From assembly GCF_900292015.1 (NCBI RefSeq), contig NZ_LR130759.1, positions 62,001 to 126,000 of the forward strand: a stretch of DNA of 64,000 nucleotides. Reading direction: 5' to 3'. A program made the position numbers and the translations under genes. Numbering within the stretch: the first letter of the stretch is position 1; every line of letters begins with the position of its first letter. Positions 15,421-25,599 of this stretch are shown here, in pieces. The notes beneath the pieces are model-generated. The model searched no databases. It was not told the DNA's origin and was given only the letters and a program-made list of their open reading frames with translations. Source of the DNA: Mycobacterium basiliense. GTDB lineage: Bacteria; Actinomycetota; Actinomycetes; Mycobacteriales; Mycobacteriaceae.

Positions 15421-16479
15421 ATGGCTATTCCGTCCGCTGTTCGCACGCCTGTGAAAGATGTGCTCGGTCGTCCGGTGTGTGATCTGCGGTTGTCGGTGAT
15501 TGATCAATGCAATTTGCGATGTCAGTACTGTATGCCGGGGGAGGACTACACCTGGCTGCCCAAGCAGAATCTGCTCACGATCGACGAGATCAGTCGAATT
15601 GTCGATGCCTTCATGGCGGTCGGCGCCACAAAGGTGAGGTTGACCGGCGGTGAACCCCTGATCCGCCCTGATTTGCCGGAGATCGTGCGAGTGCTGGCGG
15701 CCAAGCTGGGCGGATCACCGGGTCTTAGGGATCTGGCAATCACCACCAACGGTGTGCTGCTGGAGGCCAAAGCAGCCGTATTGAAAGAGGCTGGACTGCA
15801 GCGTGTCTCGATTAGTCTGGACACACTACGCCCAGAGCGGTTCTTCGAACTAAGTCGGCGACGCCATCTGGAAAGGGTGATTGCCGGCATTCGGTCGGTG
15901 CCCGCCGCGGGGTTCACCGATACCAAGCTGGACACCGTGGTGATGCGCGGGGTGAACGATGATGAGATTCTCGATCTGATCGAGTTTGCGCGATCGGTTC
16001 CCGCAGAGATTCGATTTATCGAATACATGGACGTCGGTGGCGCCACCCACTGGTCTAAAAACAAAGTCTTTCCCAAAGGCGAGATGCTCTCCACGATTGG
16101 TCGGCGGTACGGGAAGGTCGAACCGCTTCCGAAGTATGACGCCGCGCCGGCCAACCGCTATGCGCTGCCTGATGGCACGACGTTTGGCATCATCGCCTCT
16201 ACCACCGAACCGTTCTGCGCCACCTGCGATCGGTCTCGGCTAACTGCCGATGGGATGTGGCTGCACTGCCTATACGCCCTGGGCGGGACAAACCTTCGAG
16301 ATCCGTTGCGGTCTGGTGTATCTGATGCCGAACTCGTTAACATCATCACCGATGGCTGGCGCAGGCGCGCGGATCGCGGCGCGGAGAACCGGCTGGCCCA
16401 GCGGGATCGCGCGGTGTTTGTCAGCATCGAAAAGCTCAAGCGAGACCCTCATCTGGAGATGCACACTCGGGGCGGTTAG
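15421..16479 (+). CDS. moaA: GTP 3',8-cyclase MoaA (radical SAM)
   Basis: 352 residues from ATG at 15421, after AAGGAGCCTCTA. MoaA starts molybdopterin synthesis by converting GTP to 3',8-cyclo-GTP. The radical-SAM CxxxCxxC is CNLRCQYC (residues ~30-37), and the second cluster has CATCDRSRL plus a later Cys (LHC). The essential C-terminal GG is present (MHTRGG). Codon use is less GC-rich than in dnaB or ponA1. It heads a same-strand cluster and resembles the moaA3 type associated with moaX in tubercle-bacillus relatives. Confidence 0.95.
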   Translation: MAIPSAVRTPVKDVLGRPVCDLRLSVIDQCNLRCQYCMPGEDYTWLPKQNLLTIDEISRIVDAFMAVGATKVRLTGGEPLIRPDLPEIVRVLAAKLGGSPGLRDLAITTNGVLLEAKAAVLKEAGLQRVSISLDTLRPERFFELSRRRHLERVIAGIRSVPAAGFTDTKLDTVVMRGVNDDEILDLIEFARSVPAEIRFIEYMDVGGATHWSKNKVFPKGEMLSTIGRRYGKVEPLPKYDAAPANRYALPDGTTFGIIASTTEPFCATCDRSRLTADGMWLHCLYALGGTNLRDPLRSGVSDAELVNIITDGWRRRADRGAENRLAQRDRAVFVSIEKLKRDPHLEMHTRGG

Positions 16480-16575
16480 GCGTGAGATTCATTGGCATAT
16501 TGATGGTTTCCGTTAGAAGTATAGCGGCGAGGTGACAATGCACCGACGGATTGCCGCGAGGATGGTGGGAGTGTC

Positions 16576-16947
16576 ATGAACGTTAGTCGATCGGCCGGGC
16601 ATGCCGACAGCAGGAACCATGCGGTGTGCGACGGGCAGCTGTCGGCGTTGACGACGGAGGAGGTGGCGGTCCGGCTAGGCGCACTGTGCGACTGGGATCT
16701 ACGGAATGGCCGCTTGGAGCGGACGTTTCGATGCCGGAACTTCGCGGAATCGGTCGGATTTGTCAATCAGCTTGCACAGATTGCTGAGGATCTCAACCAT
16801 CACCCGAACTTCTGGGTAATAGACAAGAGGCGAGTTTCGGTTGTGATCTGGACGCACAAGATGAACTGCTTGACGAAGCTGGATTTCGATCTCGCGGCAT
16901 CGATCGGGTCGGCGTATGACGAGCTGACGGCGGCGGTGAGCTCATGA
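16576..16947 (+). CDS. Pterin-4a-carbinolamine dehydratase-like protein (mycobacterial 'MoaB3' type)
   Basis: 123 residues from ATG at 16576. The PCD fold is clear: AEDLNHHPNFWVIDKRRV, VVIWTHKMNCLTKLD. The HH-P and downstream H are the active-site residues of PCD/DCoH. In M. tuberculosis-type moa clusters this family is annotated moaB although it is unrelated to the E. coli MoaB fold. The role in molybdopterin synthesis is unproven; dehydration of a pterin intermediate would fit. It overlaps moaC by 4 bases (ATGA). Confidence 0.85.
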   Translation: MNVSRSAGHADSRNHAVCDGQLSALTTEEVAVRLGALCDWDLRNGRLERTFRCRNFAESVGFVNQLAQIAEDLNHHPNFWVIDKRRVSVVIWTHKMNCLTKLDFDLAASIGSAYDELTAAVSS

Positions 16948-23638: not shown

Positions 23639-23754
23639 AGTCGACGTGGGCTCTCAGGCACTCCGACGGCAGGATCATTCGGGGGCCCGCGGATACGCCG
23701 AAAATAACTACCGCTCTGGTGAATTCAACGTCACAAGAGCCAAGAGGGGGTGTC

Positions 23755-25599
23755 ATGGTCGAGCTTCACAATGCCCGCCAATCGACTGATTTCGAAACAC
23801 CAAATGACGATATCCGGGAAAGGTACCTTCGAGAGCGAGATAAGCGTCTGGCGGTATCTCGTGGCTACATCACTCCCGCGTCGGGCACTGTCCAGCATTA
23901 CCTGGACGACCCCTATACACCACCAATAGCCCGAAATCCTTTGGCCGACCGGGTCGACGCATTAGTCGTAGGTGGCGGTTTCGGAGGTCTGCTCACGGCG
24001 GTGCGACTAAAAGAAGCGGGCTTGCGTCGAGTCCGCATCATCGACAGCGCCGGCGATGTGGGCGGGGTCTGGTATTGGAATCGCTACCCAGGAGCCCAAT
24101 GCGACGCAGACTCTTACTGCTATCTTCCGCTACTGGAAGAGACCGGCTACATGCCGGTCGAAAAGTATTCGCATTCACCGGAAATCAGGGCGCACGCCCA
24201 GCGGATCGCCCGCCATTTCGCTCTCTACGAACTGGCGCTGTTTCAGACACGGGTCCGTCAGATGGTATGGAATGAAACGACTTTCACCTGGACGGTGCGG
24301 ACCGATCGGGGGGATGCAATCACGACGTCATATGTCGTGCTGGCTACCGGAGCGTTCAGCAACCCCATCTTGCCCGACATTGAGGGCCTGGAGTCATTCG
24401 AAGGCCATTCATTTCACACCAGCCGCTGGGACTACTCCTATACCGGCGGCGATGCCACCAGCCGCCTTTCGAAACTGCACGACAAAGTGGTCGCGGTGGT
24501 GGGAACCGGTGCCACGGCGGTCCAAGTCGTTCCACCTCTGGGCGCTTCCGCCAAGAAGTTGCTGGTTTTCCAACGTACCCCCGCGGCGGTCGATGTCCGC
24601 AATAACCGACCCACCGACCCGGACTGGGTCGCTTCCTTGGAATCGGGCTGGCAGCGGCGGCGCATACACAATCTGGCCCGAATCGTGAGCGGATACCCGG
24701 TAGACCGGGATTTGGTCGATGACGGGTGGACGCACCTGTATAAGGCGCTGCTCAATCCGGAGTTCGCTGCGATGGCGGATTCGGAAGCAGCGAAGCGGCG
24801 TGACGAGGCTGACTTGCGGCAAATGGCGCGCATCTGGACTCGCATCGACAACACCATCACAGACTCAGCCACCGCAGCGGCCCTCAAACCGTACTACCAC
24901 TACCTCTGTAAGAGCCCCTGCTTCCACGACGAGTACCTCGATGCTTTCAACCGATCGAATGTAGAGCTGATCAATACCGACGGACGCGGGATCGAACGGA
25001 TCTATGACGCTGGCGTCGTGGCCAACGGTCAGAAATTCCCCGTGGATTGCATCGTCTTCGCAACGGGGTTCGAGGGCATCGGTAACTACCCCGAGAAGAC
25101 GGGCATCGATATCATCGGTCGCCGCGGAGTCTCGATGAAGCAGCGTTGGTCAGACGGAATGTTGTCGCTGCACGGCGTGCTGAGCAGCGGGTTTCCGAAT
25201 CTTTTCTTCAACCTCGCGTCCGTCGACGGTCAAGCCACACTGTCGGTCAACATGAGCTACACGTTGGGCGGGGTCGCGGACCACATCGCGAAGATCGTTT
25301 GCGAAACCAGACGGCGGGGAGCGCGGGCATGCGAGATCGAGCCCGAGACCGAAGCGCAATGGGTCAAGCTGATCGAGTCCGGTACGGCGAGGTCCCGGAC
25401 CACCAAGCTGCGATGCACACCAGGGCGACGCAACAACAACGGCAACGTCGACCAGCAACCTCCGCGCGCAGGCATCTACCCGGGACCGGCCGTCGAATTC
25501 TTCGAACAGTTGGCCGCCTGGCGTGACGTCGAGCAGTACGCCGGCCTGAATTTCTTGATGCCCCCGTCGTACTCAGACACGCTCAACCCAGCCATCTAG
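23755..25599 (+). CDS. Baeyer-Villiger-type flavin monooxygenase
   Basis: 614 residues from ATG at 23755 after AAGAGGGGGTGTC; a GTG at 23635 overlapping the P450 stop would add 40 residues with no recognisable content. Two Rossmann motifs are present (VVGGGFGGLLTAVRLKEAG and VAVVGTGATAVQVVP), with the BVMO fingerprint FEGHSFHTSRWDY at ~215-227 and the upstream YPGAQCDADSY stretch typical of type I BVMOs with an N-terminal extension (cyclopentadecanone/phenylacetone family). It would insert oxygen next to a ketone using NADPH. It is the last gene of the cluster. Confidence 0.92.
   Translation: MVELHNARQSTDFETPNDDIRERYLRERDKRLAVSRGYITPASGTVQHYLDDPYTPPIARNPLADRVDALVVGGGFGGLLTAVRLKEAGLRRVRIIDSAGDVGGVWYWNRYPGAQCDADSYCYLPLLEETGYMPVEKYSHSPEIRAHAQRIARHFALYELALFQTRVRQMVWNETTFTWTVRTDRGDAITTSYVVLATGAFSNPILPDIEGLESFEGHSFHTSRWDYSYTGGDATSRLSKLHDKVVAVVGTGATAVQVVPPLGASAKKLLVFQRTPAAVDVRNNRPTDPDWVASLESGWQRRRIHNLARIVSGYPVDRDLVDDGWTHLYKALLNPEFAAMADSEAAKRRDEADLRQMARIWTRIDNTITDSATAAALKPYYHYLCKSPCFHDEYLDAFNRSNVELINTDGRGIERIYDAGVVANGQKFPVDCIVFATGFEGIGNYPEKTGIDIIGRRGVSMKQRWSDGMLSLHGVLSSGFPNLFFNLASVDGQATLSVNMSYTLGGVADHIAKIVCETRRRGARACEIEPETEAQWVKLIESGTARSRTTKLRCTPGRRNNNGNVDQQPPRAGIYPGPAVEFFEQLAAWRDVEQYAGLNFLMPPSYSDTLNPAI

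What the first reader, a model, noticed from the sequence alone, without database searches (positions are those of the whole stretch)
15421..25599. Molybdopterin genes fused into a 10-kb cluster with a deaminase, P450, BVMO, methyltransferase and exporter
Eleven same-strand genes with mostly 4-base stop/start overlaps begin with moaA-moaB-moaC-moaX and continue through a methyltransferase, HAD phosphatase, MFS transporter, MoeZ-type E1/rhodanese, purine/cytidine-type deaminase, cytochrome P450 and BVMO. The tight spacing is seen directly. Cofactor synthesis alone does not need the last seven. A pterin- or purine-derived secondary metabolite, or a modified molybdopterin made and exported, would fit. 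MoeZ could also supply sulfur to a carrier for natural-product synthesis.
Basis: partly seen in the sequence, partly recalled or inferred. Interest (0 to 1): 0.82.

Follow-up and report, generated by a model that had tools for sequence, protein, structure and literature searches.

The report
Molybdopterin operon with extra tailoring enzymes
A mycobacterium carries an eleven-gene operon that makes the core of the molybdenum cofactor and, next to it, enzymes that look able to turn that core into another, possibly exported, molecule; a related gene set sits in tuberculosis bacteria, where its purpose is unknown.

Summary
The eleven same-strand genes at 15421-25599 are real. Two names change: "moaB" is a pterin-4a-carbinolamine dehydratase (PCD), and "MoeZ" is a MoeBR-type E1/rhodanese. 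Five of ten junctions are 4-base overlaps. The cluster is a variant of the acquired Moco-1 island of tubercle bacilli: its P450 is CYP141-like (62% identity), and a methyltransferase and deaminase probably from those bacteria also match. Parts of the set recur elsewhere: deaminase and P450 in Rhodococcus cerastii; methyltransferase, deaminase and P450 on one 9.3-kb contig (linkage inferred from equal contig lengths); and one deaminase-P450 fusion protein. MFS and BVMO have no shown partners elsewhere. The same genome holds a second locus, moaA-PCD-moaC-moaX-methyltransferase. It has only two MoaA and two MoaE, both in these loci; the usual moa genes are missing around a retained mog and rpfA-like gene, so these loci must supply its molybdopterin. 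Best reading: molybdopterin feeds Moco, and a conserved branch (S-methylation, dephosphorylation, deamination, oxidation, export) makes a molybdopterin-derived metabolite. The branch chemistry is inferred; no product is known. Verdict: new variant of a known island, with an unrecognised tailoring module.

The parts
15421..16479 (+). moaA, GTP 3',8-cyclase (352 aa)
   Evidence: TIGR02666 343.9 bits, cut-off 284.05; both Fe-S motifs and C-terminal GG
16576..16947 (+). pterin-4a-carbinolamine dehydratase (called moaB1/moaB3 in tubercle bacilli, as recalled; not MoaB)
   Evidence: PF01329 83 bits
16944..17432 (+). moaC, cPMP synthase
   Evidence: TIGR00581 231 bits
17458..18132 (+). moaX, MoaD-MoaE fusion (molybdopterin synthase)
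   Evidence: ThiS + MoaE domains; GGS at the MoaD/MoaE junction
18129..18725 (+). class I SAM methyltransferase, moa-linked clade
   Evidence: PF13649 36.5 bits; in one group, support 100/99, with the second-locus copy and P0150
18722..19438 (+). HAD phosphatase
   Evidence: PF13419 60 bits; start by GTGA overlap
19441..20613 (+). MFS transporter, taken as exporter
   Evidence: PF07690 134.6 bits
20678..21847 (+). MoeBR: MoaD-activating E1 plus rhodanese
   Evidence: ThiF + rhodanese; CYRC and CVLC motifs
21861..22382 (+). guanosine/guanine-deaminase-like zinc deaminase
   Evidence: PF00383 55.9 bits; HAE and PCPMC; predicted fold ranks guanosine deaminase 7dbf first
22379..23638 (+). cytochrome P450, CYP141 type
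   Evidence: PDB 8c9i (CYP141) E 8.9e-163; 62% identity to P0262
23635..25599 (+). type I Baeyer-Villiger monooxygenase
   Evidence: solved relatives 5mq6, phenylacetone and steroid monooxygenases; FxGxxxHxxxW present

Best explanation
This is a Moco-1-type mobile operon. MoaA and MoaC make cPMP from GTP. MoaX, cut between GG and S and charged by the operon's own MoeBR, adds the dithiolene to give molybdopterin (MPT). Part of the MPT goes to Mog and MoeA, encoded elsewhere, for ordinary Moco. A conserved tailoring branch takes MPT or a precursor further: the methyltransferase methylates a dithiolene sulfur (as TPMT does on the way to urothione in humans), the HAD enzyme removes the phosphate, the guanosine-deaminase-like enzyme converts the 2-amino-4-oxo pterin ring to a lumazine, CYP141 (and here the BVMO) oxidises carbon or sulfur, and the MFS protein exports the product. 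Shown by sequence: gene identities, motifs, recurrence of MTase, deaminase and P450. Inferred: substrate, order of steps, product, direction of transport.
For: Families and motifs. P450 = CYP141 type. MTase, deaminase and P450 homologues (63, 58, 85%) all list a 9280-base contig; deaminase and P450 share 26369 and 32410 (the last named Rhodococcus cerastii in both lists); MTase and P450 share 6727. Deaminase-P450 fusion P0261 of 583 aa, 44% over 165 and 60% over 409 columns. An MTase follows moaX in the second locus, and the moa-linked MTases fall in one group. MoaR1 activates moaA1-D1, rv3113, rv3114 and cyp141 (PMC5720804 passage). The deaminase fold search ranks guanosine and guanine deaminases first, whose substrates share the pterin's 2-amino-4-oxo half. 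Rows of the MTase fold search include TehB, a halide methyltransferase and the echinomycin disulfide-to-thioacetal enzyme 4nec. TPMT acts on the way to urothione (passages of PMC11514484, and PMC9607355).
Against: No product, intermediate or enzyme assay is known. The MTase fold search is generic (N-, C- and S-methylating enzymes; no TPMT in the 50 rows shown), and the deaminase fold is about as close to TadA and Msmeg3575 by TM-score. The two moaX loci are the genome's only MoaA/MoaE source, so part of the operon at least serves plain Moco. BVMO and MFS have no shown link: none of 80 BVMO loci (best 80 of 591 or more; E up to 1e-8, up to 10 kb flank) carries moaA, moaC, moaX, PCD or the deaminase. 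In M. tuberculosis the nitrate phenotype of deleting rv3109-15 was restored by moaA1-D1 alone (PMC5720804 passage). Same-contig linkage rests on equal contig lengths, not on DNA seen; the fusion is a single metagenomic record and could be an assembly artefact.
Confidence: 0.45

Rival explanations
1. The operon only supplies molybdopterin for Moco under particular conditions; MTase, HAD, deaminase, P450, MFS and BVMO are passengers or act in unrelated steps.
For: The two loci stand in for the lost usual genes; PF00384 proteins are present, among them an FdhF/YdeP-type enzyme in this window. moaA1-D1 alone restored nitrate respiration in the tubercle mutant (PMC5720804 passage).
Against: MTase, deaminase and P450 recur together in other lineages, deaminase and P450 are fused in one protein, and MoaR1 activates several of them with moaA1-D1.
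Confidence: 0.25
2. The tailoring enzymes clear or recycle oxidised or surplus molybdopterin: PCD and deaminase salvage pterins, MTase caps reactive dithiols, HAD and MFS remove the waste.
For: Urothione in humans is such a catabolite and its formation needs a methyltransferase. PCD handles pterin intermediates (established function of the family).
Against: A dedicated P450 plus BVMO is a costly way to dispose of waste; among 395 sampled genomes of the genus only this one has the P450 at E up to 1e-110, so disposal of this kind is not a general need.
Confidence: 0.2
3. Two fused operons: moaA to MTase is one Moco unit (as in the second locus), and HAD to BVMO is a secondary-metabolite unit not using pterins.
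For: The second locus has no relative of the window genes after the MTase; no BVMO relative examined is near moa genes; some MTase relatives lack listed deaminase or P450 partners.
Against: MoeBR, a Moco enzyme, lies inside the second half. MTase appears with deaminase and P450 on the 9280-base contig. The HAD start overlaps the MTase stop.
Confidence: 0.1

Closest known systems
Moco-1 island of M. tuberculosis / M. canettii (rv3108-26c; Levillain 2017, PMC5720804; section 6 and passages seen)
   Same: moaA, PCD (moaB1, as recalled), moaC, MoaD/MoaE, MoeBR, CYP141-type P450, and a matching MTase and deaminase; reported as horizontally acquired
   Different: Here one compact same-strand operon; MoaD and MoaE are fused (MoaX); MFS and BVMO added; MoaR1 not sought; the usual moa genes are missing from their place. 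The gene order of Moco-1 is recalled, not fetched
moaA3-B3-C3-X locus of tubercle bacilli
   Same: moaA-PCD-moaC-moaX; close in content to this genome's second locus. moaC3, moaX and rv3322c are named together in PMC6650194 (passages); that Rv3322c is a methyltransferase is recalled
   Different: The window locus adds HAD, MFS, MoeBR, deaminase, P450, BVMO
Urothione formation in humans (TPMT)
   Same: Proposed chemistry: S-methylation of molybdopterin and loss of its phosphate
   Different: Human catabolism; the fold search rows for the window MTase show no TPMT; no deaminase/P450 operon

Membership tests
Moco-1-type island | extra moaA-PCD-moaC-MoaD/E set beside a MoeBR | tested here: met
   here it is not extra to a usual set, which is missing
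Moco-1-type island | CYP141 relative | tested here: met
   8c9i E 8.9e-163; 62% over 394 aa to P0262
Moco-1-type island | matching methyltransferase and deaminase | tested here: inconclusive
That these are Rv3120 and Rv3114 is inferred
Moco-1-type island | MoaR1 regulator | not tested
   no MoaR1 sequence was used
MoaX | MoaD-GG-S-MoaE in one chain | tested here: met
   GGS at residues 104-106 of P0004; site from passages of PMC4326299
MoaX | cut between Gly and Ser in the cell | not testable with these tools
   needs protein work
MoeBR rather than MoeZR | two CXXC motifs; NYRD marks MoeZR | tested here: met
   CYRC, CVLC in P0008; NYRD in the genome's other copy L107
MoaB | MoaB/Mog (MoCF_biosynth) domain | tested here: not met
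   P0002 matches only Pterin_4a at E up to 0.001
Pentalenolactone synthase / PtlE pathway | P450 and BVMO above the curated cut-offs | tested here: not met
   181.2 of 700 bits and 672 of 1100 bits
Type I BVMO | FxGxxxHxxxW fingerprint and Rossmann motif | tested here: met
   FEGHSFHTSRW at 255, GGGFGG at 113

The most novel reading that the evidence does not exclude
The operon is a dedicated biosynthetic pathway that uses molybdopterin itself as the starting scaffold for an S-methylated, deaminated, oxidised and exported pterin natural product. The orphan CYP141 of tubercle bacilli and its neighbours would be a reduced version of the same pathway.
Probability: 0.3. Interest if true: 0.85.

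Novelty: new variant of a known kind. Interest (0 to 1): 0.6.

Why it matters
CYP141 and its neighbour genes sit in a horizontally acquired island of tubercle bacilli; the reported phenotype of the island region that I saw, nitrate respiration under hypoxia, was put down to moaA1-D1 (PMC5720804 passages). A compact relative with recurring partners and a deaminase-P450 fusion gives CYP141 a concrete substrate class to test. If molybdopterin is a natural-product precursor, it opens a branch of pterin metabolism that I did not see in the listings of nine paper searches or in the passages read. The genome is also a case where acquired moa loci appear to have replaced the vertically inherited set.

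Tried and rejected
BVMO as a probe for related clusters: best 80 of 591 or more matching stretches in genome contigs, identity 45-50%; at E up to 1e-8 none of the 80 loci has moaA, moaC, moaX, PCD or the deaminase, and two (L054, L088) have a MoeZ-like hit. Many of these loci are shorter than the 10-kb flanks asked for. This used the single scan of that collection. MTase relatives in 5 other genomes of the class (5 of 393 others at E up to 1e-25): 20 kb around each holds no moa gene at E up to 1e-4. Plasmid records: all matches to MoaX and deaminase under 60% identity. Rfam: no match at E up to 1 in 14600-26200 of the window or 7400-12500 of L006. Promoter- and terminator-like sites: no more than in shuffles (3 against 2.6; 6 against 8.0). 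Empty-site comparison: in 6 of 6 fetched relatives the GH6 gene downstream matches, in one (L134) also the FAD oxidoreductase beyond it, and nothing of 15421-25599 or upstream does at DNA level, so the insertion edges stay undefined. Pentalenolactone pathway rejected (below cut-offs). MoeZ as donor to a foreign carrier rejected (MoeBR type). On re-check I dropped an earlier claim that the usual moa place has no room for moaC2: 518 bases are free beside mog, but no MoaC, MoaA, MoaD or MoaE match lies in L101-L103 at E up to 0.1.
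Full report
WHAT IS THERE. The window is bases 62001-126000 of an unnamed one-contig genome of 5,607,630 bases. A PPE protein upstream points to a mycobacterium. Eleven + strand genes run from 15421 to 25599: moaA, pterin-4a-carbinolamine dehydratase (PCD), moaC, moaX, methyltransferase, HAD phosphatase, MFS, E1/rhodanese, zinc deaminase, P450, BVMO. With the starts chosen, 5 of 10 junctions are 4-base overlaps and the largest gap is 96 bases. 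Cluster G+C is 61.0% against 63.5% for the window, a weak hint of foreign origin.

CORRECTED NAMES. The second gene is Pterin_4a, not MoaB. The E1/rhodanese carries CYRC and CVLC, the marks of MoeBR; the genome's other copy, 63% identical, carries NYRD, the mark of MoeZR (rule in passages of PMC3227635). In that paper MoeBR sulfurated MoaD1 and MoaD2 but not CysO. The window MoaX keeps GG-S at the junction where tubercle MoaX is cut (passages of PMC4326299).

A SECOND LOCUS AND A LOST THIRD. The genome has two MoaA and two MoaE: the window's, and those of L006, where moaA-PCD-moaC-moaX-MTase lie in a row (69, 56, 81, 68, 47% identity to the window genes). The vertically inherited set, reported in all mycobacteria examined in PMC5720804 (section 6 read), is not in its usual place. 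In L101 the order is cold-shock gene, YccF gene, rpfA-like gene, mog (MoCF_biosynth), two helicase genes; 32 bases lie between the rpfA-like gene and mog and 518 beyond mog, and MoaA, MoaC, MoaD and MoaE of both loci give no match in L101-L103 at E up to 0.1. The canonical order (moaC2-mog-moaE2-rpfA-moaD2-moaA2) is recalled. MoaA and MoaE are thus missing genome-wide outside the two loci; for MoaC and MoaD only L101-L103 were examined. The genome has five PF00384 matches (one may be NuoG, not checked), one of them an FdhF/YdeP-family enzyme above its cut-off in this window, and five MoCF_biosynth matches (MoeA among them is assumed). So Moco is very probably used, and the two moaX loci must supply its molybdopterin.

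THE CLOSEST KNOWN SYSTEM. The P450 matches CYP141 of M. tuberculosis (8c9i) at E 8.9e-163 and a CYP141-like protein at 62% over 394 aa; the next solved relatives are far weaker (267 against 546 bits). The methyltransferase is 50% identical to P0150, which has 378 member sequences and the same longest-contig length (6727) as CYP141-like P0262 and P0263; the deaminase is 54% identical over 112 aa to P0023. I infer that these belong to the Moco-1 island. PMC5720804 (section 6 and passages) reports that MoaR1 activates rv3113, rv3114, rv3121 (cyp141) and rv3125c besides moaA1-D1. That rv3113 and rv3114 are a HAD phosphatase and a deaminase, and Rv3120 a methyltransferase, is recalled.

RECURRENCE OF THE MODULE. 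In three protein searches the contig of 9280 bases is listed for deaminase P0019 (58%), methyltransferase P0141 (63%) and P450 P0258 (85%); 26369 for deaminase P0020 and P450 P0259; 32410, Rhodococcus cerastii in both lists, for deaminase P0021 and P450 P0260 (best 120 listed of 159, 139 and 143). Linkage is inferred from equal lengths and, once, an equal organism name. P0261 (583 aa, one record) is a deaminase joined to a CYP141-type P450; in the window these two genes overlap by 4 bases. In the methyltransferase tree of 26 rows (chosen from the 120 listed), the window, second-locus and P0150 copies fall in one 11-row group, support 100/99, apart from 15 others.

RARITY. Besides this genome, at the cut-offs used: deaminase in 0 of 60 relatives and 0 of 396 order genomes; moaX in 0 of 296 genus genomes; P450 in 0 of 394 genus and 0 of 379 order genomes. 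The samples overlap, and they seem to hold no tubercle-complex genome with these genes, so they bound rarity only among what was sampled.

FUNCTION. The deaminase model (mean pLDDT 89.0, 19 rows) is ranked nearest to plant guanosine deaminase and a bacterial guanine deaminase, TM 0.64-0.71 by query; TadA and Msmeg3575 score about the same TM, so the fold does not fix the substrate. Guanine-type substrates and pterins share the 2-amino-4-oxo pyrimidine half (established chemistry). The methyltransferase model (91.8) matches TehB and many other class I enzymes, which does not decide between S-, N-, C- or O-methylation. The human precedent for methylation on the way to urothione is TPMT (passages). 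From this I propose that part of the molybdopterin is methylated, dephosphorylated, deaminated, oxidised and exported. Order and product are guesses; BVMO and MFS are additions with no shown partners elsewhere (MFS was not searched beyond families).

WEIGHT. Identity as a Moco-1-type island: about 0.93. A tailoring branch acting on molybdopterin or a precursor: about 0.45. Plain Moco supply with passengers: 0.25. In the listings of nine paper searches and the passages read I saw no assigned substrate for CYP141 and no molybdopterin-derived bacterial natural product; PMC6469627 (passages) says CYP141A1 is predominantly found in the tubercle complex.

Noticed in passing
L101:6551-14295 (G000:C1:4668001-4688000): Usual mycobacterial moa place without moaC2, moaE2, moaD2 and moaA2 while mog and an rpfA-like gene stay; apparent replacement by acquired moaX loci.
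   Followed up: partly
L006:8242-11491: Second moaA-PCD-moaC-moaX-MTase locus between an NRPS gene (3235-7674, -) and an amidase gene (12238-13734, +); its MoaX has GGGG-R instead of GG-S at the MoaD/MoaE junction, so cutting may differ.
   Followed up: partly
window:35118-37454: FdhF/YdeP-family molybdoenzyme (TIGR01701, 1088.9 bits) 9.5 kb downstream of the cluster.
   Followed up: no
window:29761-30675: Haloalkane dehalogenase (NF002938, 445.1 bits, cut-off 241).
   Followed up: no
window:25673-26725: GH6 (cellulase-family) gene just downstream of the cluster; long DNA matches of 70-80% identity in many relatives, which lack the cluster's deaminase.
   Followed up: partly
P0261 (583 aa, contig length 2686): Deaminase-CYP141-type P450 fusion protein in a single metagenomic record.
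   Followed up: partly
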